Positions 5,990 to 16,335 of a DNA stretch of 64,000 nt are shown in pieces (position 1 is the first letter of the stretch; each line of letters begins with the position of its first letter). The DNA lies in contig NZ_SWDV01000027.1 in NCBI RefSeq assembly GCF_005877905.1, forward strand, positions 1 through 64,000, in the 5' to 3' direction. The notes under the pieces were generated by a model, which searched no databases, had not been told where the DNA came from, and saw only the letters and a list, made by a program, of their open reading frames with translations. The stretch comes from Pseudomonas nicosulfuronedens (GTDB taxonomy: Bacteria > Pseudomonadota > Gammaproteobacteria > Pseudomonadales > Pseudomonadaceae). The position numbers and the translations under genes were made by a program.

Positions 5990-6724
5990 TCAGTGCCAGT
6001 AATCCCCCGGCGGGGCTGGCAATTCGCCGAGCAACTGGCGTAACCCGGCGCCCCACTGCCCGCGAATGCCCTCGAAGTACGCATCGCCTTCCTGGATGCG
6101 ATACCCCGCCGGCACTTCCAGGCTGCCCTCGCGGTAGACCAGCAGGTCCAGCGGCATGCCCACCGAGAGGTTGCTGCGGATGGTCGAATCGAAGCTGATC
6201 AGCGCGCAGCGCAGGGCCTGCTCCAGCGGCGTGGCGTAGCTCATGGCGCGGTCGATGATCGGCTTGCCGTACTTGCTCTCGCCGATCTGGAAGTAGGGCG
6301 TATCACGGCAGGACTCGATGAAGTTGCCCTGCGGGTAGACGTTGAACAGGCGCGGCACTTCCGTGCCGATCTGCCCACCGACAAGGAACGAGCTGCCCAG
6401 GTCGACACCCTGGTTCTGGCCGATGTTCTCGTCGTGATCGACTACCTCGCGCAGGGTCGAGCCTACCAGCCGGGCCGCCTCGAACAGGTTCTCGACATTC
6501 CCCAGGTTCGGTCCGTCGCCGCCCATGCGCTGGCGCAGCGTGCTGATCACCGATTGCGAGGTGGCCAGGTTGCCGGCGCTCTGCACCACGATCAGCCGCT
6601 CCCCCGGCGTGCCAAAGATATGCAGCTTGCGGAACACGGCGATGTTGTCGACGCCGGCATTGGTGCGCGAATCGGAAACGAAGACCAGGCCTTGGGCGAG
6701 GTTCATGGCAACGCAGTAGGTCAT
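5990..6724 (-). CDS. Anbu, bacterial proteasome-type peptidase
   Basis: A 244-residue Ntn-hydrolase of the ancestral beta-subunit (Anbu) type, related to 20S proteasome beta subunits and HslV. Met is followed at once by Thr2, the expected N-terminal nucleophile after Met removal. VSDSRTNAG carries the conserved Asp at position 17 of the mature chain, and FRKLH supplies the Lys near position 32-33. There is no propeptide. Structural work on Anbu homologs has shown open helical rings, but the physiological substrate is unsettled. It is the last gene of a leftward cluster with a transglutaminase-like protein (79-bp gap), an alpha-E protein and a circularly permuted ATP-grasp, the recurrent Anbu neighbourhood. 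The ribosome binding site is weak, so expression may rely on upstream translation. Confidence 0.9.
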   Translation of the reverse strand: MTYCVAMNLAQGLVFVSDSRTNAGVDNIAVFRKLHIFGTPGERLIVVQSAGNLATSQSVISTLRQRMGGDGPNLGNVENLFEAARLVGSTLREVVDHDENIGQNQGVDLGSSFLVGGQIGTEVPRLFNVYPQGNFIESCRDTPYFQIGESKYGKPIIDRAMSYATPLEQALRCALISFDSTIRSNLSVGMPLDLLVYREGSLEVPAGYRIQEGDAYFEGIRGQWGAGLRQLLGELPAPPGDYWH

Positions 6725-6803
6725 GACGATCTCATGGCAGGTTCACGGAGCGGGAAAGCTGGCACCGATCTTAAGCCGGTGCCAGGCCTTTCGCCACGCC
6801 TGC

Positions 6804-7613
6804 TCACTGTTGCATCTGCTGGGCCTGCTGCAGGTGCCCCGGCGCCACCGTCACGCGCGCATGCATCTGCTCGCCCCCGCCACCCCGTCGCATGCCGCGC
6901 ACCGGGCAGGCGTCGAGGTAGTCCAGGCCGACGGCCAGCTTCAGGTGGCGCTCCGGGCGGTCAAGCACATTGGTCACGTCGAAGCTGTACCAGGCGTCGT
7001 CCAGCCAGGCCTCGGCCCAGGCGTGGCTGGCCAGGTGTTCCTCGGCGTCGGTGTAGAGATAGCCGGAGACGTAGCGCGCCGGCACACCCAGGTAACGCAG
7101 GCAAGCGAGGAAAGCGTGGGCATGGTCCTGGCAGACGCCCTGCCCGGCCGCGAAGGCTTCGGCGGCGGTACTGTCCACCTGGGTCGAGCCGGGCACGTAA
7201 GCGATGCGATCATGCAACGCCTGCATCAGCTGGATCATCGCCTTGCGGTCACGGCGCTCGGCGCACTGGGCGCGGGCGAATTCCTGCAGCGCACCATCGG
7301 CCAGCGTCAGGCGGGTGCTGCGCAGGAACGGCAATGGCGACAGGTGATCGTGCTCGCACTCGTTCTCCACGTCGATTTCCACCTGGCCATGGGCGGCGAT
7401 GACGATGGCCTCGTGGGGCTCGTCCAGGGTCAGTACATGGAGAATGTTGCCATAGGCATCGCGCTGCGGATGAGCCGGGCGCGGCAGGTGCAACTGCCAG
7501 TCGAGCACGTGCTGGCGCTCGCTTTCCTGTGGCGTCAGGCGCAGGTACTGGATGCTCGCGCGCACCTGGTCTTCGTAGCGGTAAGTGGTGTCATGGCGGA
7601 TGGAGAGTTTCAT
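6804..7613 (-). CDS. Transglutaminase-like cysteine peptidase family protein
   Basis: A 269-residue protein with an N-terminal bacterial transglutaminase-like domain (residues about 1-80, opening MKLSIRHDTTYRY) and a transglutaminase core. The catalytic triad is visible as Cys161 (GVCQDHAH), His197 (SHAWAEAW) and Asp212 (FDVTN). Members may hydrolyse or transfer amide bonds; the actual reaction here is unknown. The C-terminus is Gln-rich (LQQAQQMQQ). The true start is the ATG that overlaps the stop of the alpha-E gene by four bases (ATGA), indicating translational coupling. A longer open frame upstream is only read-through of the alpha-E coding region. Confidence 0.9.
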   Translation of the reverse strand: MKLSIRHDTTYRYEDQVRASIQYLRLTPQESERQHVLDWQLHLPRPAHPQRDAYGNILHVLTLDEPHEAIVIAAHGQVEIDVENECEHDHLSPLPFLRSTRLTLADGALQEFARAQCAERRDRKAMIQLMQALHDRIAYVPGSTQVDSTAAEAFAAGQGVCQDHAHAFLACLRYLGVPARYVSGYLYTDAEEHLASHAWAEAWLDDAWYSFDVTNVLDRPERHLKLAVGLDYLDACPVRGMRRGGGGEQMHARVTVAPGHLQQAQQMQQ

Positions 7614-8557
7614 GCGGCCTCCAGATACGAGCTGTGAATGGCGTTGGCGAGCTGGCGAACCAGCCCGATGTGTTCGGTGATCCAGGCGTGCAGGCCGGCA
7701 TCCAGCACTTCGTCGATGCCGGTGTAGCGCACCCGGGCTTCCAGTTCGGCGGCCATGCGCTGGGCCGGACGGCCGTTGGCGCCGGGCAGGCTGGCGAGGA
7801 TCTGGCGCAGCTCCTCGGCGCAGGCCAGCAGCGAGCGCGGGACGTCTTCGCGCAGCAGCAGGAGTTCGGCGATGTTGCGGGCGTTGAGGGCGTCGCGGTA
7901 CAGCTCGGTGTAGCCCTCGAAGGCCGACAAGGCGCGCAGCAGTGCGGTCCACTGGTAGTAGCCGCGCGCGGAACCTTCGGCCGGCCCCTGGTCGCCGCCG
8001 AGGATCTGGTTGCGCGCATCGAGCAGGCGCAGGGTGTTGTCGGCACGCTCGATGTAGGTGCCCAGGCGAATGAAGTGGAAGGCGTCGTTGCGCATGCTGG
8101 TGCCGAACGTGGCCCCGCGGAACAGGTGCGAACGGTCCTTCACCCATTCGCAGAAGTGGCTGATGCCGTAGCGCAGCAGACCCTGGTGGGCGATGTCGCG
8201 CATCTCCAGCCAGGTGGCGTTGATGTTCTCCCACATGTCGGTGGTGATCCGTCCGCGCACCGCATGGGCGCCGGCGCGGGCGGCACCGAAGCAGGAATAG
8301 ATACTGGTGGGGTTCTGCGCATCCAGCGCGAAGAAGTTCAGCAATCGCTCGGCGTGCAGTTCGCCGTGGCGGGCCAGGTAGGCGTCCAGGTTGCCGGTGA
8401 TGCGCAGCGGCATGGCCAGTTCCTCCAGGCCATCGCCACGGCCATCCTGCGGCATCAGCGACAGCGAGTAGGACACGTCGAGCATGCGCGCGAGGTTCTC
8501 GGCGCGTTCCAGGTAACGCGACATCCAGTACAGGTCGGAAGCGGTACGGCTCAGCAT
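7610..8557 (-). CDS. Alpha-E domain protein (DUF403)
   Basis: A 315-residue, almost entirely helical protein of the alpha-E family, opening MLSRTASDLYWMSRYLERAEN, which is typical of the group. It has charged motifs such as WEN, FIRLGTYIERADN and a C-terminal ANAIHSSYLEAA. The family is nearly always found next to circularly permuted ATP-grasp proteins and transglutaminase-like proteins and was predicted from gene context to take part in peptide synthesis or modification; its chemistry is not established. AAGGA lies about 10 bases before the start. Its stop overlaps the transglutaminase start. A 270-bp gap with a strong inverted repeat separates it from the ATP-grasp gene upstream. Confidence 0.9.
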   Translation of the reverse strand: MLSRTASDLYWMSRYLERAENLARMLDVSYSLSLMPQDGRGDGLEELAMPLRITGNLDAYLARHGELHAERLLNFFALDAQNPTSIYSCFGAARAGAHAVRGRITTDMWENINATWLEMRDIAHQGLLRYGISHFCEWVKDRSHLFRGATFGTSMRNDAFHFIRLGTYIERADNTLRLLDARNQILGGDQGPAEGSARGYYQWTALLRALSAFEGYTELYRDALNARNIAELLLLREDVPRSLLACAEELRQILASLPGANGRPAQRMAAELEARVRYTGIDEVLDAGLHAWITEHIGLVRQLANAIHSSYLEAA

Positions 8558-8704
8558 GATGCGGTGCGTCCTTACAGTTAATGGCGAACCACGTTGGTGA
8601 TGGGGGCCTGCCAGGCTAGACGCGGGACGCCGGTGATGGTCGGCCCCTCACCCAGTCCCGCAACGACGCATGGCAGGCCCACAGCGCCAACCCGCAGGGC
8701 TGTG

Positions 8705-8790
8705 CCCCGAAAGGCGCAAGCTGATGCAACTCGTGTTTCATCGGTATTCACTGAAACCTCCTTCTCTTCCGAACCTTGCGCCTTTCGGGG
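8705..8790. repeat. 16-bp perfect inverted repeat inside the Anbu cluster
   Basis: CCCCGAAAGGCGCAAG (8705-8720) is exactly repeated in inverted form as CTTGCGCCTTTCGGGG (8775-8790), with 54 bases between. It lies in the only sizeable gap of the cluster, between the ATP-grasp and alpha-E genes. It could form a large stem-loop in the mRNA and lower downstream expression or protect the upstream message. No T-tract follows, so it is not a standard terminator. Confidence 0.7.
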
Positions 8791-8827
8791 CGCAGCGGGG
8801 TCGTCATTCACTGTGAGGACGCAGCGT

Positions 8828-10237
8828 CTACTCCACCACCCAGGTGTCCTTGGTACCGCCACCTTGTGACGAATTGACCACCAGCGAGCCTTCGCGCAGC
8901 GCCACGCGGGTCAGGCCACCGGGCACCAGGCGCACGTTGTCCGGCGCGGACAGCACGAAGGGCCGCAGGTCGATGTGGCGCGGGGCGATACCGTTCTCGA
9001 CGAAGGTCGGGCAGGTCGACAGGCTCAGGGTCGGCTGCGCGATGTAGGCCTCCGGGCGGGCCATGAGCCGGGCGCGGAAGGCTTCGATCTCGGCGCTGGT
9101 CGACGCCGGTCCCACCAGCATGCCGTAGCCACCGGAGCCCTGGGCTTCCTTCACCACCAGCTCGGGCAGGTGCGCCAGCACGTGGGACAGGTCCTGCGGC
9201 CGGCGGCATTGCCAGGTGGGCACGTTGTGCAGGATCGGCTCCTGGTCGAGGTAGAAGCGGATCATCTCCGGTACGTACGGATAGACCGACTTGTCGTCGG
9301 CCACGCCGGTACCGATGGCGTTGGCCAGCACCACGTTGCCGGCGCGGTAGGCAGCCAGCAGGCCGGGCACGCCGAGCATGGAGTCGGGGTTGAAGGCCAG
9401 CGGGTCGAGGAAGTCGTCGTCGATGCGCCGGTAGATCACGTCCACCTGCTGCGGGCCGGCGGTAGTACGCATGTAGACGCGCTCGTCGCGAACGAACAGG
9501 TCGGCGCCTTCCACCAGCTCCACGCCCATCTCGCGAGCGAGGAAGGCGTGCTCGAAGTAAGCGCTGTTGAATCGGCCCGGCGTGAGCACCACCACGCTGG
9601 GATTGTCCAGCGGGCTGGAGTTGCGCAGAGTGTCCAGCAGCAGGTTCGGGTAGTGGTCGATGGGCGCGATGCGCTGGGCGGAGAACAGCTCCGGGAACAG
9701 GCGCATCATCATCTTGCGGTTCTCCAGCATGTAGGAGACGCCGCTGGGGGTGCGCAGGTTGTCCTCGAGCACGTAGTACGCGCCATTGCCGTCGCGCACC
9801 AGGTCGATGCCGGCGATGTGCGCGTAAACGTTGCCGGGCACGTCCAGGCCCTGCATGGCCAGTTGGTACTGGTCGTTGGCCAGCACCTGCTCGGGTGGGA
9901 TCAGGCCTTCCTTGAGGATGCGCTGGTCATGGTAGAGATCGGCGAGAAACAGGTTGAGCGCCTGCACCCGCTGGATGCAGCCGGCCTCGATGATCTTCCA
10001 CTCGCTGGCGGGAATGCTGCGCGGGATGGTGTCGAAGGGGATCAGGCGTTCGGTGCCCTGGTCGTCGCCGTACAACGTGAAGGTAATCCCGGCGCGATAG
10101 AACAACAGGTCGGCCTCGCGGCGACGCTGCTGCAGCTGTTCGCCGGGCATGTCCGCCAGCCAGCGGGCGAACTCCGTGTAGTGCGGTCGGCAGGCGCCAG
10201 CGGCGTCATGCATTTCGTCATAGAACACCCGAGCCAT
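8828..10237 (-). CDS. Circularly permuted ATP-grasp type 2 family protein
   Basis: A 469-residue protein of the circularly permuted ATP-grasp family (formerly DUF404/DUF407). It opens [14 protein letters not shown] and contains the characteristic blocks [48 protein letters not shown] and [17 protein letters not shown], the last two contributing metal and nucleotide binding. ATP-grasp enzymes join a carboxylate to an amine through an acyl phosphate, so a peptide or amide ligase is predicted; the substrate is unknown. AAGGAG is seven bases before the ATG. It is the first gene of the leftward Anbu cluster, so the cluster promoter should lie in 10238-10588. It appears full length. Confidence 0.92.
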
Positions 10238-10588
10238 CTTCTACTCCTTGTTGCCGCTCGTCCTCGGCTGAAGGAACCGTCGCAAGGCCCGTGCCAGAGG
10301 TCGAATTCCTGTTCGTTCAATGACTTGCGAAGGTTGCCCGGCCGCCCCGCACCAGAGCGGTGCGATTTTGTCGGCCAGCAACCCCGGATCGCCCCGTTTG
10401 GAGCCGCGAGCGCCATGTGGCGGGCCTTTGCGGGGTGCCGGGGGCTTTCTTGTCAGCCTCTGGGGCCGGAACTACGCTGCAAGAGCGTGCCCATTTCCCA
10501 TGGACATGCCGCGATCAACAGAGGTGCCAATTTTCTGCGCGCTGGTATCGCAGTGGCTCCCACAACGTAGAACAACAGGAGTCCGTCC
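10238..10588. other. Divergent regulatory region between Anbu cluster and ydcS
   Basis: 351 bases without a gene separate the leftward ATP-grasp gene from the rightward ABC transporter operon. Both promoters must lie here. The recognisable element is an NtrC-like dyad at 10349-10363. A GC-rich stretch near 10375-10460 is followed by a more mixed leader. I found no sigma-54 -24/-12 element with correct spacing. Confidence 0.5.
10349..10363. promoter_or_regulatory. NtrC-like binding site
   Basis: GCACC-AGAGC-GGTGC matches the enteric NtrC dyad form GCACC-N5-GGTGC exactly. It is 226 bases upstream of the substrate-binding protein start, a plausible enhancer distance. Putrescine uptake and breakdown genes are nitrogen-controlled in other bacteria, which fits. 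A matching sigma-54 promoter is not evident, so the assignment is tentative. Confidence 0.4.
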
Positions 10589-11761
10589 ATGTCATCCGTG
10601 CCATTCTTTTCAGTGAAAGTCGCGGCGCTGGCCTTCGTCGGCGCCAGCCTGCTCGCCAGCGGTTCGTTGCAGGCCGCCGAAGCGCTCAAACAGCTGGGCA
10701 ACCCCGAAGGGGCGCTGGATATCATCGCCTGGCCCGGCTACATCGAACGCGGCGAGAGCGACAAGAACTACGACTGGGTCAGCCAGTTCGAGAAAGACTC
10801 CGGCTGCAAGGTCAACGTGAAGACGGCCGCCACCTCCGACGAGATGGTCAGCCTGATGGCCAAGGGCGGCTACGACCTGGTTACCGCCTCCGGCGACGCC
10901 TCACTGCGGCTGGTCTATGGCAAGCGCGTGCAGCCGATCAATATCGCCCTGGTGCCCAACTGGAAGAACGTCGACAAGCGCCTGCAGGACGCGCCCTGGC
11001 ACACCGTGGATGGCAAGCACTTCGGCACGCCCTACCAGTGGGGGCCGAACGTGCTGATGTACAACACCAAGGTCTTCCCCAAGGCGCCGGACAGCTGGAG
11101 CGTGGTGTTCAGCGAGCAGAAGCTGCCCGACGGCAAGAGCAACAAGGGCCGCGTGCAGGCCTATGACGGCCCGATCTACATCGCCGACGCGGCGCTCTAC
11201 CTGAAGACCGCCGAGCCCAAGCTGGGCATCCAGGATCCTTACGAACTCAACGAGGAGCAGTACGCCGCCGCCCTCAAGCTGCTGCGCGAACAGCAGAAGC
11301 TGATCCACCGCTACTGGCACGACGCGACGGTGCAGATGAGCGACTTCAAGAACGAGGGCGTGGCGGCTTCCGGCTCCTGGCCATACCAGGTGAACGCGCT
11401 GCAGGGCGAGAAGCAGCCGATCGCCTCGACCATCCCCGGCGAAGGTGTCACTGGCTGGGCCGATACCACCATGATGCACGTCGACGCCAAGCACCCGGTC
11501 TGCGCCTACAAGTGGCTGAACTGGTCGCTGGAGCCCAAGGTACAGGGTGACGTCGCCGCCTGGTTCGGCTCGGTGCCAGCGGTTCCGGACGGCTGCACCG
11601 GCAGCCAGCTGCTCGGCGCCCAGGGCTGCGCGAACAACGGCTATGACCAGTTCGACCGCATCGCTTTCTGGAAGACTCCACAGGCCAAGTGCGAGCAAGG
11701 CCAGTGCGTGCCGTACAGCCGGTGGACACAGGACTACATCGCGATCATGGGCGGGAGGTGA
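10589..11761 (+). CDS. ydcS: ABC transporter substrate-binding protein (YdcS-like, polyamine type)
   Basis: A 390-residue periplasmic binding protein. A signal peptide of about 30 residues ends near LQAAEA, and the mature part begins LKQLGNPEGALDIIAWPGYIERG, typical of YdcS/PotD-like proteins. WPGYIE, TSDEMVSLM and TPYQWGPNVLMYN line the binding cleft in this family. It probably binds putrescine or a related polyamine; the ligand is inferred from the operon, which ends in an aminobutyraldehyde dehydrogenase. AGGAG lies eight bases before the ATG. A 265-bp gap containing two palindromes follows, which may allow higher expression of this gene than of the transporter body. Confidence 0.87.
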   Translation: MSSVPFFSVKVAALAFVGASLLASGSLQAAEALKQLGNPEGALDIIAWPGYIERGESDKNYDWVSQFEKDSGCKVNVKTAATSDEMVSLMAKGGYDLVTASGDASLRLVYGKRVQPINIALVPNWKNVDKRLQDAPWHTVDGKHFGTPYQWGPNVLMYNTKVFPKAPDSWSVVFSEQKLPDGKSNKGRVQAYDGPIYIADAALYLKTAEPKLGIQDPYELNEEQYAAALKLLREQQKLIHRYWHDATVQMSDFKNEGVAASGSWPYQVNALQGEKQPIASTIPGEGVTGWADTTMMHVDAKHPVCAYKWLNWSLEPKVQGDVAAWFGSVPAVPDGCTGSQLLGAQGCANNGYDQFDRIAFWKTPQAKCEQGQCVPYSRWTQDYIAIMGGR

Positions 11762-11796
11762 CGCTGTATTGCTCGCCTGAAAGCCCCTCTACCCTG

Positions 11797-11926
11797 CCCT
11801 CTCCCTGAAGGGAGAGGGGGTATCCGATTCAGGCATGCAGCCGTGCAAAAGGCATGCTTGGGCGCAGGTTGAAGCCGTGATTACGCTTGATGCCGATCCA
11901 GTCCCCTCTCCCTTCAGGGAGAGGGA
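11797..11926. repeat. Two palindromic CCCTCTCCCT repeats between ydcS and ydcT
   Basis: Near-perfect palindromes of the form CCCTCTCCCTTCAGGGAGAGGG occur at 11797-11820 and 11904-11926. The first has TGA and the second TCA at the centre, so the two units are in opposite orientation and can also pair with each other. Two further copies lie at 14783-14876 in the same operon. They probably form RNA hairpins that affect mRNA stability. Confidence 0.8.
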
Positions 11927-12026
11927 ACACAGCATCAGCCACACCATGGCCTCCCGCTGACCAAGCGCCCTTCCCCCCATGCGCTACCTTTTCTGATGCA
12001 GCCCCGCCAATCAGGTAGCCAGCAGC

Positions 12027-13046
12027 ATGACCACAGCCGTCCAGTTCACTGACGTGAGCCGTCACTACGGTGAGGTGCGTGCCGTCGATTCGGTGTCCAT
12101 CGAGATCCGCGACGGCGAGTTCTTCTCCATGCTCGGCCCCTCCGGATCGGGCAAGACCACTTGCCTGCGGCTGATCGCCGGCTTCGAGCAGCCCACCTCC
12201 GGCTCCATCCGCATCCACGGCGCGGAAGCGGCAGGCCTGCCACCTTACGAGCGCGACGTAAACACGGTGTTCCAGGACTATGCGCTGTTCCCCCACATGA
12301 GCGTGCTGGACAACGTTGCCTACGGCCTGAAGGTAAAAGGCGTAGCCAAGGCCGAACGCTACCACCGCGCCGAAGAGGCCCTCGGCATGGTCGCCCTGGC
12401 CGGGTACGGCAAGCGCAAGCCGGCGCAGCTCTCCGGCGGCCAGCGCCAGCGTGTTGCCCTGGCCCGTGCCCTGGTCAATCGCCCGCGCGTACTGCTGCTG
12501 GACGAGCCTCTCGGCGCTCTGGACCTCAAGTTGCGCGAGCAGATGCAGGTGGAACTGAAGAAGCTGCAGCGCCAGCTCGGCATCACCTTCATCTTCGTCA
12601 CCCATGACCAGAGCGAAGCGCTGTCCATGTCCGACCGCGTGGCGGTGTTCAACAAGGGCCGCATCGAACAGGTCGACACTCCCGGCAATCTCTACCGCCG
12701 CCCCGCCACGCGCTTCGTCGCCGAGTTCGTCGGTACCGCCAACGTGCTGCGCGGGGACCTCGCCCAGCGCCTGCTCGGCGAATCCCGCCCGCACTCGCTG
12801 CGCCCCGAGCACGTGCGCTTCGGCCATGCCGGCGAAGGGGAACTGGAAGTCAGCGGCACCCTGTTCGACGTGCAATACATGGGCGCGAGCAGCCGCTACG
12901 AGATCGAGTTGGAGAACGGCGTGCGGCTGGTCGCCGCCCTGCCCAACGGCGAACGCGAGGAGCAAAGGCCGCAACCCGGTGACGCGGTAACCGCCTGTTG
13001 GGCACGCAGCGCGCTGGTGCCGCTGCTCGAGGAGCCGGCAACGTGA
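12027..13046 (+). CDS. ydcT: ABC transporter ATPase (YdcT/PotA-like)
   Basis: A 339-residue nucleotide-binding subunit of a polyamine-type importer. Walker A is GPSGSGKTT (37-45), the signature is LSGGQRQR, and Walker B is VLLLDEPLGALD followed by the D-loop. The switch His is in FVTHDQSEAL. Residues after about 240 form the C-terminal TOBE regulatory domain. It energises uptake through the two downstream permeases. The ribosome binding site is weak (AGGTAGCCAGCAGC before ATG). Its last codons overlap the GTG start of the first permease (GTGA). Confidence 0.92.
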   Translation: MTTAVQFTDVSRHYGEVRAVDSVSIEIRDGEFFSMLGPSGSGKTTCLRLIAGFEQPTSGSIRIHGAEAAGLPPYERDVNTVFQDYALFPHMSVLDNVAYGLKVKGVAKAERYHRAEEALGMVALAGYGKRKPAQLSGGQRQRVALARALVNRPRVLLLDEPLGALDLKLREQMQVELKKLQRQLGITFIFVTHDQSEALSMSDRVAVFNKGRIEQVDTPGNLYRRPATRFVAEFVGTANVLRGDLAQRLLGESRPHSLRPEHVRFGHAGEGELEVSGTLFDVQYMGASSRYEIELENGVRLVAALPNGEREEQRPQPGDAVTACWARSALVPLLEEPAT

Positions 13047-13945
13047 GGGCGATCTCCAGCTTTCTCTACCGGCGCAGCACGCTCTACCTGCTGATGCTGC
13101 TGATCCCGCCGTTGCTGTGGTTCGGCGTGATCTACATCGGCTCGCTGTTCGCCTTGCTCTGGCAGAGCTTCTACACCTTCGACGACTTCACCATGGCGGT
13201 GACGCCGGACCTGACCCTGGCCAACTACAAGGCCCTGTTCAACCCGGCCAACTACGACATCGTGCTGCGCACTTTCAGCATGGCGATTGCCGTGTCGGTG
13301 GCCAGCGCCCTCCTCGCCTTCCCCATCGCCTACTACATGGCGCGCTATGCCGGGCCCAAGGAAAAAGCCTTCTTCTACATCGCGGTAATGCTGCCGATGT
13401 GGGCCAGCTATATCGTCAAGGCCTATGCCTGGACGGTGATCCTGGCCAAGGGCGGCATCCTCTACTGGGTGATCGAGCACCTGCACCTGCTCGGCCTGCT
13501 GGACCTGCTGCTGGAAGTACCCGGCGTGGGTGGCAACACCCTGTCGACCTCGCACATCGGGCGCTTCTGGGTATTCACCTACATCTGGCTGCCGTTCATG
13601 ATCCTGCCGATCCAGGCCGCCCTGGAGCGCCTACCGCCGTCACTGCTGCAGGCTTCGGCCGACCTCGGTGCGCACCCGCGGCAGACCTTCTTCCAGGTCA
13701 TCCTGCCGCTGGCCTTCCCTGGCGTCGTGGCCGGCTCGATCTTCACCTTCAGCCTGACCCTGGGCGACTTCATCATCCCCCAGCTGGTCGGCCCCAGCGG
13801 GCTGTTCATCGGCACCATGGTCTATGTGCAGCAGGGCGCGGTGGGCAACATGCCGCTGGCGGCGGCGTTCACCCTGGTGCCCATCGTGCTGATCGCTGTC
13901 TACCTGTCCATCGCCAAGCGACTGGGGGCCTTCGATGCGCTCTGA
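13043..13945 (+). CDS. ydcU: ABC transporter permease (YdcU-like)
   Basis: A 300-residue inner-membrane permease with six predicted membrane segments, beginning after the basic N-terminus [12 protein letters not shown]. The EAA-type loop is visible around [29 protein letters not shown], the contact site for the ATPase. The start is a GTG that overlaps the ATPase stop by four bases; an earlier alternative start would cut into the ATPase reading frame. Its end overlaps the second permease by 11 bases, so all subunits are translationally coupled. Confidence 0.9.
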
Positions 13946-14756
13946 CGCCCACTCCACCGATCGCCCCTCCTGGTTCCTGCGCCTGGCCGCCTGGGGCGGG
14001 CTGCTGTTCCTGCACTTTCCGATCCTGGTGATCCTGCTCTACGCCTTCAACACCGAGGAGTCGGCGTACAGCTTCCCGCTGCAGGGCTTCACCCTGAAGT
14101 GGTTCAGCATCGCCTTCGGGCGCGGTGACGTGCTCGACTCCATCTGGCTGTCGGTGAAGATCGCCTGCGTGGCCACGCTGATCGCCATGGTCCTCGGCAC
14201 CCTGGCCGCCGGCGCGCTGTACCGTCGCGACTTCTTCGGCAAGGAAAGCATCTCGCTGATGCTGATCCTGCCCATCGCCCTGCCCGGCATCATCACCGGT
14301 ATCGCCCTGCTCTCGGCGTTCAAGACGCTGGGGATCGAACCGGGCTTGCTGACCATCGTCATCGGCCACGCGACCTTCTGCGTGGTGATCGTCTACAACA
14401 ACGTGATCGCACGCTTCCGCCGCACGTCGTTCAGCCTGATCGAAGCGAGCATGGACCTGGGCGCCGACGGCTGGCAGACCTTCCGCTACATCATCCTGCC
14501 GAACATTGCCACGGCGCTGCTGGCCGGCGGCATGCTGGCCTTCGCCCTGTCGTTCGACGAGATCATCGTCACCACCTTCACCGCCGGCCACGAGCGCACC
14601 CTGCCGCTGTGGCTGCTCAACCAGCTGACCCGCCCGCGCGACGTGCCCGTGACCAACGTGGTGGCGATGCTGGTGATGCTCGCCACCATGCTGCCGATCC
14701 TCGGCGCGTATTACCTCACGCGCGGCACCAGCGACGTCGCGGGGAGCGGCAAATGA
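13935..14756 (+). CDS. ydcV: ABC transporter permease (YdcV-like)
   Basis: A 273-residue second permease of the polyamine-type importer, with six predicted membrane helices and the EAA loop in [25 protein letters not shown]. It pairs with the preceding permease to make the heterodimeric channel. The ATG lies within the 3' end of the previous gene. The C-terminus ends TSDVAGSGK. It is followed by two palindromic repeats and then the dehydrogenase gene. Confidence 0.9.
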
Positions 14757-14782
14757 TCCCGTGCCAAGCGCCCCCTCCCTAG

Positions 14783-14876
14783 CCCTACCCCTGAAGGGAG
14801 AGGGGACTGGAACGGCGCAGGAGGAAACGACCGTTTTCGCCGGCACGGACAGCTCCCTCTCCCTTCAGGGAGAGGG
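14783..14876. repeat. Two palindromic CCCTCTCCCT repeats before patD
   Basis: A degenerate copy (14783-14805, ACCCCTGAAGGGAGAGGGG) and a perfect copy (14855-14876) of the palindrome also found at 11797-11926. They flank a short spacer and end 34 bases before the dehydrogenase start, so they may influence the transporter-to-enzyme ratio. Confidence 0.8.
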
Positions 14877-14910
14877 TTGGAGAGAGGGAAACCCACTACG
14901 GAGGAGCCCC

Positions 14911-16335
14911 ATGCAAACCAAACTGCTGATCAACGGCCAGTTCGTCGCCGGCGAAGGCGCGAAGCTGGACGTCCTCAACCCCGCCACGGGCGAAGTGATC
15001 GGCCAGGTCGCCGAAGCCAGCGAAGCCCAGGTGGACACGGCCATGCGCGCCGCCGATGCCGCCTTCGACAGCTGGTCGCAGACCGCGCCGAAGGACCGCG
15101 CCATGCTCCTGTTGCGTCTGGCCGATCGCATCGAGGAGCATGCCGAGGAACTGGCCAAACTGGAATCGGACAACTGCGGCAAGCCCTACGCGGCCGCGCT
15201 GAACGATGAGATCCCGGCTATCGCCGATGTCTTCCGCTTCTTCGCCGGCGCCTGTCGTGTGCTGCCCGGTTCCGCCGCTGGCGAGTACCTGCCCGGTTTC
15301 ACCTCGATGATTCGCCGCGACCCGGTGGGCGTGGTCGCCTCCATCGCGCCCTGGAATTACCCGCTGATGATGGCGGCATGGAAGCTTGGCCCGGCACTGG
15401 CCGCCGGCAACTGCGTGGTGCTCAAGCCCTCGGAACAGACTCCGCTGACCGCCCTGCGGGTGGCCGAATTCATCGCCGAGCTGTTCCCTGCCGGCGTGGT
15501 GAACATGGTGTTCGGCCGCGGCCCGAGCGTGGGCGCACCGCTGGTCAGCCATGATCTGGTGCGCATGGTCTCGCTGACCGGCTCGGTGGGCACCGGCAAG
15601 GCCATCATCAAGAGCGCCGCCGACAGCGTGAAGCGCCTGCACATGGAGCTGGGCGGCAAGGCCCCGGTGATCGTCTTCGACGATGCCGACCTGCAGGACG
15701 TGATCGCCGGCATCCGCACCTTCGGTTTCTACAACGCCGGGCAGGACTGCACCGCGGCCTGCCGCATCTACGCCGGCAAGAAGGTCTACGACAATTTCGT
15801 CGCCGACCTCGCCAGTGCGGTATCGAGCCTCAAGACCGGCCTGCAGAACGACCCGAATACCGAACTCGGCCCGCTGATCACTGCGGCCCAGCGCGACCGG
15901 GTCTCCGGCTTCATCGAACGGGCCAAGGCCAGCCCGCACATCCAGATCGCTACTGGCGGCAAGATGGTCAGCGGCAAGGGCTTCTTCTACGAACCGACTG
16001 TGGTGGCCAACGCCCAGCAGGACGACGAGATCGTCCGCCGCGAAGTGTTCGGCCCGGTGGTCTCGGTGACCCCGTTCAGCGATGCGGACGAGGCGGTGCG
16101 CTGGGCGAACGACTCCGATTACGGACTTGCCTCATCGGTGTGGACGAAGGATGTCGGCCGCGCCTCACGGGTGGCCGCGCGCCTGCAATACGGCTGCACC
16201 TGGGTGAACACCCACTTCATGTTGTGCAGCGAAATGCCCCACGGCGGCTTCAAGCAGTCCGGCTACGGCAAGGACCTGTCCATGTACGGCCTGGAGGACT
16301 ACACCGTGGCGCGGCACATCATGTTCAAGCACTGA
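14911..16335 (+). CDS. patD: 4-aminobutyraldehyde dehydrogenase (PatD/YdcW-like)
   Basis: A 474-residue NAD-dependent aldehyde dehydrogenase. The catalytic Cys280 is in [11 protein letters not shown], the general base Glu246 is in HMELGGKAP, Asn149 is in PWNYPLM, and the coenzyme motif GSVGTGK is present. Length and Cys position match E. coli PatD/YdcW, which oxidises 4-aminobutyraldehyde to 4-aminobutyrate in putrescine breakdown. The ydcSTUV-like genes directly upstream support this. GGAGG sits just before the ATG, and the upstream open codons are repeat sequence. A matching putrescine aminotransferase is not in the window. Other aminoaldehydes cannot be excluded. Confidence 0.88.

What the first reader, a model, noticed from the sequence alone, without database searches (positions are those of the whole stretch)
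5990..10237. Complete Anbu cluster: proteasome-like peptidase with ATP-grasp, alpha-E and transglutaminase-like proteins
Sequence shows four leftward genes: permuted ATP-grasp, alpha-E, transglutaminase-like (intact Cys161-His197-Asp212) and Anbu with Thr2 exposed after Met removal and no propeptide. Co-occurrence of these families is known and a peptide-synthesis/modification role was predicted from gene context, but no product or substrate is established. Inference: the ATP-grasp and alpha-E proteins make a peptide-like tag or cap, the transglutaminase-like protein attaches or trims it, and Anbu removes the tagged product. This is the best candidate in the window for a system not yet understood.
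Basis: partly seen in the sequence, partly recalled or inferred. Interest (0 to 1): 0.7.

Follow-up and report, generated by a model that had tools for sequence, protein, structure and literature searches.

The report
Nitrogen-starvation Anbu operon
This is a known four-gene bacterial operon that includes a relative of the proteasome; its control region ties it to nitrogen starvation, which suggests it helps the cell scavenge or recycle nitrogen, although its chemical substrate is still unknown.

Summary
In detail: ATP-grasp, alpha-E, transglutaminase-like and Anbu genes lie at 5990-10237 with active-site residues intact. This is the published Anbu operon (PMC5666114, PMC6376114), not a new system.

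The pair is kept in 26 of 27 Pseudomonadaceae loci, the window included. A sigma-54 site precedes the operon in 49 of 67 named loci, against 22 of 879 other called genes. In print, P. putida induces the genes under nitrogen limitation; a related Anbu-less cluster of B. cenocepacia needs NtrC.

Of 25 same-genus genomes, 21 have all four genes and four have none. Anbu alone is dispensable: two family members keep only the other three.

Best reading: a nitrogen-limitation amide-bond module in which ATP-grasp with alpha-E ligates, and the transglutaminase-like enzyme and Anbu cleave. The regulation is well supported; the chemistry is inferred. Against simple sigma-54 control, a P. putida rpoN mutant still induced, and 18 of 67 loci lack the site. 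A protein tag is neither found nor excluded.

The parts
8828..10237 (-). Circularly permuted type 2 ATP-grasp protein, first gene of the operon (469 aa)
   Evidence: PF14403 561.7 bits; solved relative 3n6x, E 4e-213; E158, N160, R162, K363, G369, G370, G372, D423, R425 the same in 28 of 28
7610..8557 (-). Alpha-E protein (315 aa), probable partner of the ATP-grasp protein (inference from fusions and gene order)
   Evidence: PF04168 306.3 bits; no solved relative by sequence at E up to 1; R14, E17, R18, G166, E170 the same in 51 of 51
6804..7613 (-). Transglutaminase-like cysteine enzyme (269 aa), start overlaps the alpha-E stop by 4 bases
   Evidence: PF08379 and PF01841; Cys161-His197-Asp212 present
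5990..6724 (-). Anbu, proteasome-like Ntn hydrolase, Thr2 exposed if Met is removed
10281..10296 (-). Sigma-54 -24/-12 site TGGCACGGGCCTTGCG, 59 nt before the ATP-grasp start
   Evidence: one mismatch; kept in 26 of 27 Pseudomonadaceae loci
10348..10364 (-). NtrC-type dyad CGCACC-N5-GGTGCG, 68 nt upstream of the -24 element
   Evidence: the only exact GCACC-N5-GGTGC in the 64-kb window
8558..8827 (-). 270-nt near-palindromic stretch between the ATP-grasp and alpha-E genes, absent in most same-genus loci examined
10589..16335 (+). Divergent neighbour (context only): ABC importer (SBP, ATPase, two permeases) and aldehyde dehydrogenase; polyamine type is my inference

Best explanation
The operon is a nitrogen-limitation module. 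When nitrogen runs short, NtrC bound at the dyad activates sigma-54 RNA polymerase at the -24/-12 site and the four genes are made together. The ATP-grasp protein, with alpha-E as its helical partner, uses ATP to form an amide bond on a small carboxylate, amine or peptide substrate. The transglutaminase-like cysteine enzyme and the Ntn hydrolase Anbu then rearrange or cleave amide bonds of that product or of peptides, so that amino nitrogen is recovered for assimilation. Anbu is an accessory last step: many bacteria keep the other genes without it. Shown here: gene content, intact active-site residues, co-variation, promoter conservation. Shown by others: induction under nitrogen limitation in P. 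putida; NtrC- and sigma-54-dependence of a related cluster without Anbu in B. cenocepacia; phosphate release from ATP by the Yersinia ATP-grasp protein. Inferred: that NtrC binds this dyad, that alpha-E partners ATP-grasp, every substrate, the order of steps, and that the net effect is nitrogen recovery.
For: Sigma-54 site (25 with one mismatch, 1 with two) plus dyad (at most 3 mismatches) at an offset of 66-68 nt in 26 of 27 Pseudomonadaceae loci, the window's own included. Sigma-54 site with at most 2 mismatches within 300 nt before ATP-grasp in 49 of 67 named loci, against 1.0 expected from dinucleotide shuffles and 22 of 879 upstream regions of other called genes in those loci. Dyad with at most 2 mismatches within 160 nt upstream of 21 of those 49 sites, against 0.34 expected from base shuffles. 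Composite motif at 2 places in the 6.68-Mb genome, one of them here, the other inside a long open frame; reversed-pattern control 0. On an Acidithiobacillus caldus megaplasmid two Anbu genes, ATP-grasp and alpha-E sit near amt, P-II, glnA, ntrC, glnL and an aliphatic amidase, with a sigma-54 site before ATP-grasp and a 1-mismatch dyad before one Anbu. P. putida: log2 fold 4.44 (Anbu) and 3.99 (ATP-grasp), nitrate over ammonium, and 3.7-fold induction of the ATP-grasp promoter reporter (PMC8050072, passages). B. cenocepacia ntrC mutant: values of -8.2, -9.4, -9.4 and -6.0 for I35_5080-83 (ATP-grasp domains, alpha-E, TG, large TG), named among common NtrC and sigma-54 targets (PMC5491218, passages; column heading not seen). 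Marine metagenomes: these domains correlate with urea-metabolism domains (PMC3597751, passages).
Against: In a P. putida rpoN mutant induction persists (14.16, 16.02 and 19.61 fold for TG, alpha-E and ATP-grasp), as it does for urtABCD, and Anbu itself changed little in the wild type there (1.12 fold) (PMC7801951, whole Table 2). 18 of 67 loci lack a site with at most 2 mismatches: seven Psychrobacter, Klebsiella (L036, 3 mismatches), Limimaricola, Paracoccus, P. fuscovaginae, P. frederiksbergensis, Rhodovarius, Caballeronia (L121), three MAG loci (L105, L108, L114) and the Anbu operon of B. cenocepacia itself (L039). P. pudica (L049) is counted among the 49 but its match lies at -161, not at the usual place. 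For Psychrobacter the start was first misplaced; correcting it gave no site, although rpoN is present in 6 of 6 searched. Two rhizobial loci also lack it. Of ten solo Anbu loci none has a site with at most 2 mismatches. Taken singly the motifs are not rare: in the window 12 matches with up to 2 mismatches to the sigma-54 consensus (22 expected) and 17 near-dyads with up to 1 mismatch (7.5 expected); the weight lies on conservation. The Anbu promoter reporter did not respond to nitrogen in P. putida. Upstream of this genome's only P-II gene I saw only 3-mismatch dyads, so the NtrC assignment rests on a recalled consensus and on mutants of another species. Regulation does not fix the chemistry: Anbu did not cleave standard peptides (PMC5666114 section 13; PMC6376114) and no substrate is known.
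Confidence: 0.42

Rival explanations
1. Pup-like tagging and proteolysis: ATP-grasp and alpha-E build or attach a peptide-like tag to proteins, the TG-like enzyme edits it, and Anbu degrades the tagged proteins to recycle amino acids in nitrogen starvation.
For: Anbu binds epoxomicin and MG132 at its N-terminal Thr (PMC5666114 section 13). The actinobacterial Pup-proteasome system is reviewed as a proposed amino-acid recycling route in nitrogen starvation (PMC8223512, passages). The operon pairs an amidoligase-type protein with a proteasome relative.
Against: I found no gene for a protein tag in the canonical operons (median gaps 11, 13, 75 nt) and no widely shared neighbour in the clusters printed. 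No specific partner of Anbu in pull-downs and no peptidase activity (PMC6376114). The other genes occur without Anbu, and a related cluster without Anbu is under the same nitrogen control.
Confidence: 0.2
2. Amine or polyamine conjugate pathway: ATP-grasp joins an amine such as spermidine or putrescine to a glutamyl or glutathione-like carboxylate, as glutathionylspermidine synthetase does (recalled), and the two hydrolases release the nitrogen.
For: The only solved sequence relative at E up to 0.001 is annotated putative glutathionylspermidine synthase (3n6x). The divergent neighbour is an ABC importer with an aldehyde dehydrogenase; its binding-protein gene lies beside the operon in 20 of 21 same-genus loci. 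B. cenocepacia NtrC targets include potA and potD.
Against: The 3n6x name is an annotation, not a test. Among named loci outside the P. nitroreducens match (L044) the binding protein was not found at E 1e-30; only ATPase matches at 34-55% identity in L035, L036, L057 and L105. Pfam gives only generic transporter families.
Confidence: 0.18
3. Nitrogen-rich storage polymer: the ATP-grasp makes an amide-linked reserve that TG and Anbu mobilise.
For: Cyanophycin synthetase contains an ATP-grasp domain (recalled). Synthesis and breakdown genes would sit together.
Against: Induction occurs in nitrogen limitation, when storing nitrogen seems least useful. I saw no such polymer mentioned in the passages read.
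Confidence: 0.06
4. Anbu is a general protease for damaged or starved-cell proteins and only shares a promoter with an unrelated peptide-modifying set.
For: 10 of 89 loci have Anbu with no partner detected nearby, and none of these ten has a sigma-54 site with at most 2 mismatches. The Anbu promoter of P. putida is nitrogen-agnostic. Fuchs et al. favour protein degradation (PMC5666114 section 14).
Against: Strong co-occurrence: 22 of 24 genomes with Anbu have alpha-E, against 7 of 90 without Anbu.
Confidence: 0.14

Closest known systems
Anbu operon of Pseudomonas and Yersinia (Fuchs 2017 PMC5666114; Y. bercovieri 2017 PMC6376114; Iyer 2009 as cited there)
   Same: Same four families in the same order; Thr nucleophile without propeptide
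   Different: The only oddity I found is a 270-nt near-palindromic stretch between ATP-grasp and alpha-E, seen in this genome and two relatives
P. putida KT2440 PP_2685-PP_2688
   Same: Same four gene types, induced under nitrogen limitation
   Different: KT2440's own promoter was not examined here; three loci of that broad lineage (group assignment recalled; L049, L050, L053) lack the sigma-54/dyad layout at the usual place
B. cenocepacia I35_5080-83 (ATP-grasp, alpha-E, TG, large TG)
   Same: Shared domain families; NtrC and sigma-54 dependent in print
   Different: Has a large TG protein and no Anbu among these four genes
Pup-proteasome system
   Same: A ligase that forms amide bonds paired with a proteasome-type particle; role in nitrogen starvation
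   Different: PafA is not an ATP-grasp enzyme (recalled); Pup and an ATPase belong to it, and no linked counterpart was found here

Membership tests
Anbu (proteasome-like Ntn hydrolase) | Close sequence relationship to solved Anbu chains | tested here: met
   Profile that includes this protein matches 5loy, 5nyw, 5nyj, 5lox, 5nyf at E 1e-99 or better
Anbu (proteasome-like Ntn hydrolase) | N-terminal Thr after Met, Asp, Arg, Lys of the active site, no propeptide | tested here: met
   Thr2, Asp18, Arg20, Lys33 the same in 10 of 10
Anbu (proteasome-like Ntn hydrolase) | Open-ring dodecamer | not testable with these tools
   Reported for Anbu in PMC5666114 (abstract)
Anbu operon | ATP-grasp, alpha-E, TG-like and Anbu in this order on one strand | tested here: met
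   same order in 44 of 89 other loci
NtrC/sigma-54 regulon | -24/-12 site before the first gene, conserved | tested here: met
   missing in 18 of 67 loci
NtrC/sigma-54 regulon | NtrC binding upstream | tested here: inconclusive
   Conserved dyad fits the recalled consensus; binding not tested; own P-II gene control weak
NtrC/sigma-54 regulon | Induction lost without rpoN | not testable with these tools
   In print for another species it is not lost: P. putida rpoN mutant (PMC7801951)
Pup-like tagging system | Genetically linked tag protein and ATPase | tested here: not met
   No room in most canonical operons and no widely shared neighbour in the 25 clusters printed; unlinked genes were not searched for
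Glutathionylspermidine synthetase-like ligases | Ligation of a polyamine to glutathione | not testable with these tools
   Relative 3n6x is only annotated so

The most novel reading that the evidence does not exclude
Many Gram-negative bacteria may possess an AAA-free counterpart of the Pup-proteasome system: under NtrC control in nitrogen starvation, an ATP-grasp/alpha-E ligase marks proteins or peptides with a tag made without a ribosome, a transglutaminase-like enzyme edits it, and the open Anbu ring degrades the marked material to recycle amino acids.
Probability: 0.12. Interest if true: 0.88.

Novelty: new member of a known kind. Interest (0 to 1): 0.42.

Why it matters
What Anbu, a proposed ancestor of the proteasome, acts on is still open in the papers I read. 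Fixing the condition under which the operon is made (nitrogen limitation, probably NtrC/sigma-54) across many beta- and gamma-proteobacterial genera, rather than in P. putida alone, tells experimenters when to look and which mutants to compare. It also shifts the search from general protein quality control to nitrogen scavenging. That Anbu is the dispensable member directs attention to the ATP-grasp/alpha-E product.

Tried and rejected
Loss of sigma-54 itself in Psychrobacter as the reason for the missing site: rejected, rpoN found in 6 of 6 Psychrobacter genomes searched (24 of 24 genomes of that call have it, L087 was not held). Conserved outside partner gene: none seen in the 25 largest neighbour clusters printed for 89 loci; by eye the recurrences were within clades or generic families such as ABC ATPases. 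Pfam tally of neighbours of ten solo-Anbu loci: no family in more than 2 of 91 proteins (91 of the 106 listed, the A. caldus locus and six short frames left out). First composite-motif search used too short a gap (ours is 52 nt) and found nothing; repeated with a wider gap. Viral contigs: no close Anbu relative with one protein as query. The dyad read as a transcription terminator (one search lists it): I think it unlikely, since the half-sites persist where a pair is broken (L008, L024) and I see no gene ending before it on that strand. The 270-nt stretch as a dispersed repeat: rejected, single copy in the genome. Structure of alpha-E: never obtained, the machine was busy each time. Nitrogen control in cyanobacteria: not tested; one actinobacterial and one Deinococcus locus were only scanned for sigma-54 sites and dyads, without a hit of 2 mismatches or fewer; GlnR and NtcA sites were not sought. 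Literature searches listed nothing that I judged relevant by title and abstract start. The gene control rests on an in-box gene caller that picked some wrong frames by eye.
Full report
Observation. Active-site residues are in place: Anbu has Thr2, Asp18, Arg20 and Lys33, the same in 10 of 10 aligned relatives; the TG protein has Cys161, His197 and Asp212; the ATP-grasp keeps its glycine-rich and acidic motifs in 28 of 28. By sequence the nearest solved relatives are Anbu structures and, for ATP-grasp, 3n6x, annotated putative glutathionylspermidine synthase. Alpha-E has no solved relative at E up to 1.

Known system. The operon and its order are in print (PMC5666114, abstract and sections 8, 13, 14 read; PMC6376114, passages). 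Those papers report no peptidase activity on standard substrates, binding of proteasome inhibitors to the N-terminal Thr of Pa-Anbu, no specific partner in pull-downs with Anbu as bait, and phosphate release from ATP by the Yersinia ATP-grasp protein. Iyer 2009 and Hervas 2008 were not held; these and Hervas 2009 are known to me only as cited by others.

Co-variation. In 56 relatives searched with each gene, 21 of 25 same-genus genomes (own included) hold all four and the other four (G001, G006, G015, G021) hold none. For TG I count only the high-scoring matches, since weak superfamily matches occur in 54 of 56 genomes. Among ten further family members, G029, G031, G033 and G034 have all four, G027 and G032 lack only Anbu, and G025, G026, G028 and G030 lack all. 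Over the 56, Anbu occurs in 29, all within the 34 with ATP-grasp and alpha-E (Fisher p 4e-11, not corrected for relatedness). In 114 genomes spread over the class, 24 have Anbu, 29 have alpha-E and 22 have both. Of the two with Anbu alone, G125 is 78% complete and G077 has only a partial Anbu match.

Architecture elsewhere. Of 89 loci (80, nine from plasmids), 44 have the canonical order. In 15 (Acinetobacter, Psychrobacter) alpha-E was not detected by BLAST. The three of these that I examined (L059, L063, L091) have what looks like a reduced form, separate in Acinetobacter and fused to ATP-grasp in Psychrobacter; only L059 was checked with Pfam (44.7 bits). Ten have Anbu with no partner detected in the flanks held. 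Six have ATP-grasp, alpha-E and Anbu without TG. Three have Anbu divergent from ATP-grasp and alpha-E. Six (L045, L046, L062, L076, L078, L098) are cut at a contig edge. The other five (L040, L070, L075, L081, L101) are single arrangements. Plasmids of S. meliloti, R. leguminosarum, Deinococcus and Tsukamurella have the first three genes without Anbu next to them.

Control region. A -24/-12 site (TGGCACGGGCCTTGCG, one mismatch) lies 59 nt before the ATP-grasp start. The only exact GCACC-N5-GGTGC in the window lies 68 nt further up. Neither motif alone is convincing in 64 kb when mismatches are allowed: 12 sigma-54 matches with up to 2 mismatches (22 expected) and 17 dyads with up to 1 (7.5 expected). 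Conservation is what counts. The pair at an offset of 66-68 nt occurs in 26 of 27 Pseudomonadaceae loci, the window's own included; the miss is L022. Of the 89 loci, 67 had an ATP-grasp start and at least 200 nt upstream; 49 of 67 have a site with at most 2 mismatches against 1.0 expected in shuffles, and 23 with at most 1 against 0.07. Among 879 other called genes in the same set of loci, 22 and 2 do (Fisher p 2e-49, not corrected for relatedness). Upstream of the 49 sites a dyad with at most 2 mismatches occurs in 21 (0.34 expected). Sites are seen in loci titled Serratia, Pantoea, Erwinia, Kosakonia, Aeromonas, Marinobacter, Alcanivorax, Roseateles, Achromobacter and Dechloromonas; the Acinetobacter loci keep a sigma-54 site but mostly no clear dyad. 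The signal is not universal. The 18 misses are seven Psychrobacter, L036 (Klebsiella plasmid), L037, L041, L039 (the Anbu operon of B. cenocepacia), L050, L053, L105, L108, L112, L114 and L121; L049 counts as a hit only through a match at -161. Two rhizobial loci also lack it, and so do all ten solo Anbu loci.

Published expression. P. putida: PMC8050072 (passages), PMC3325844 (passage: 11.1, 6.6 and 7.1 in the first value column for PP2685-2687, column headings not seen) and PMC7801951 (passages and whole tables) show raised expression under nitrogen limitation, though PP_2685 (Anbu) rose only 1.12 fold in the wild type of the last. Against sigma-54: in PMC7801951 the rpoN mutant still induces PP_2686-2688 14-20 fold, as it does urtABCD. 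Either that strain is not a clean null for these promoters, or P. putida uses another promoter; the missing layout in three loci of that broad lineage (group assignment recalled) fits the latter but does not prove it. Burkholderia: a cluster without Anbu needs NtrC and is named among common sigma-54 targets (PMC5491218, passages). [quoted passage not shown] So nitrogen control is not new for P. putida, and a sigma-54 link of this COG is in print. The joint sigma-54/dyad footprint before the whole operon across genera I did not find stated in searches.

Context. On an A. caldus megaplasmid the genes lie near amt, P-II, glnA, ntrC and glnL. In Azospirillum a solo Anbu lies among amidase, hydroxyisourate hydrolase and transporter genes. 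In the window the operon faces an ABC importer and an aldehyde dehydrogenase; the binding-protein gene is beside the operon in 20 of 21 same-genus loci. I saw no neighbour shared widely across lineages.

Mechanism. I commit to a nitrogen-limitation amide-bond module with Anbu as accessory hydrolase. The link to nitrogen limitation is strongly supported (I put it near 0.9); the chemistry is inference. The lack of a linked tag gene and the frequent absence of Anbu make a small-molecule or peptide substrate somewhat more likely than protein tagging.

Verdict.

Noticed in passing
window 8558-8827: Near-palindromic 270-nt stretch between ATP-grasp and alpha-E (predicted fold -146 kcal/mol), single copy in this genome. 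Also in two relatives (L013 93%, L015 84%) but absent in the other 12 of 14 same-genus loci examined (L003-L016), including closer ones (L003-L005). Where present the ATP-grasp protein ends one residue earlier.
   Followed up: partly
L059 7606-8208, L063 7564-8202, L091 5765-8116: Moraxellaceae loci carry what looks like a reduced alpha-E (about 200 aa, ER motif degenerate by eye), in Psychrobacter fused to the C-terminus of ATP-grasp (Pfam only for L059).
   Followed up: partly
L121 8136-8912: TG protein of Caballeronia glebae has Ala in place of the catalytic Cys while keeping His and Asp.
   Followed up: no
L040 and L128 (A. caldus megaplasmid): Two Anbu genes, ATP-grasp, alpha-E and a large TG near ntrC, glnL, glnA, P-II and amt, with an aliphatic amidase.
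   Followed up: partly
L035 8001-8735: Solo Anbu of Azospirillum among hydroxyisourate hydrolase, amidase, amidohydrolase and ABC transporter genes.
   Followed up: no
G007, G009, G011, G012, G016, G019 and others: A second cluster with a fused ATP-grasp/alpha-E protein (about 843 aa) and a very large TG protein; this genome has only one ATP-grasp and one alpha-E match.
   Followed up: no
G011:C74:453-860: Partial second Anbu copy close beyond the first, near a contig end.
   Followed up: no
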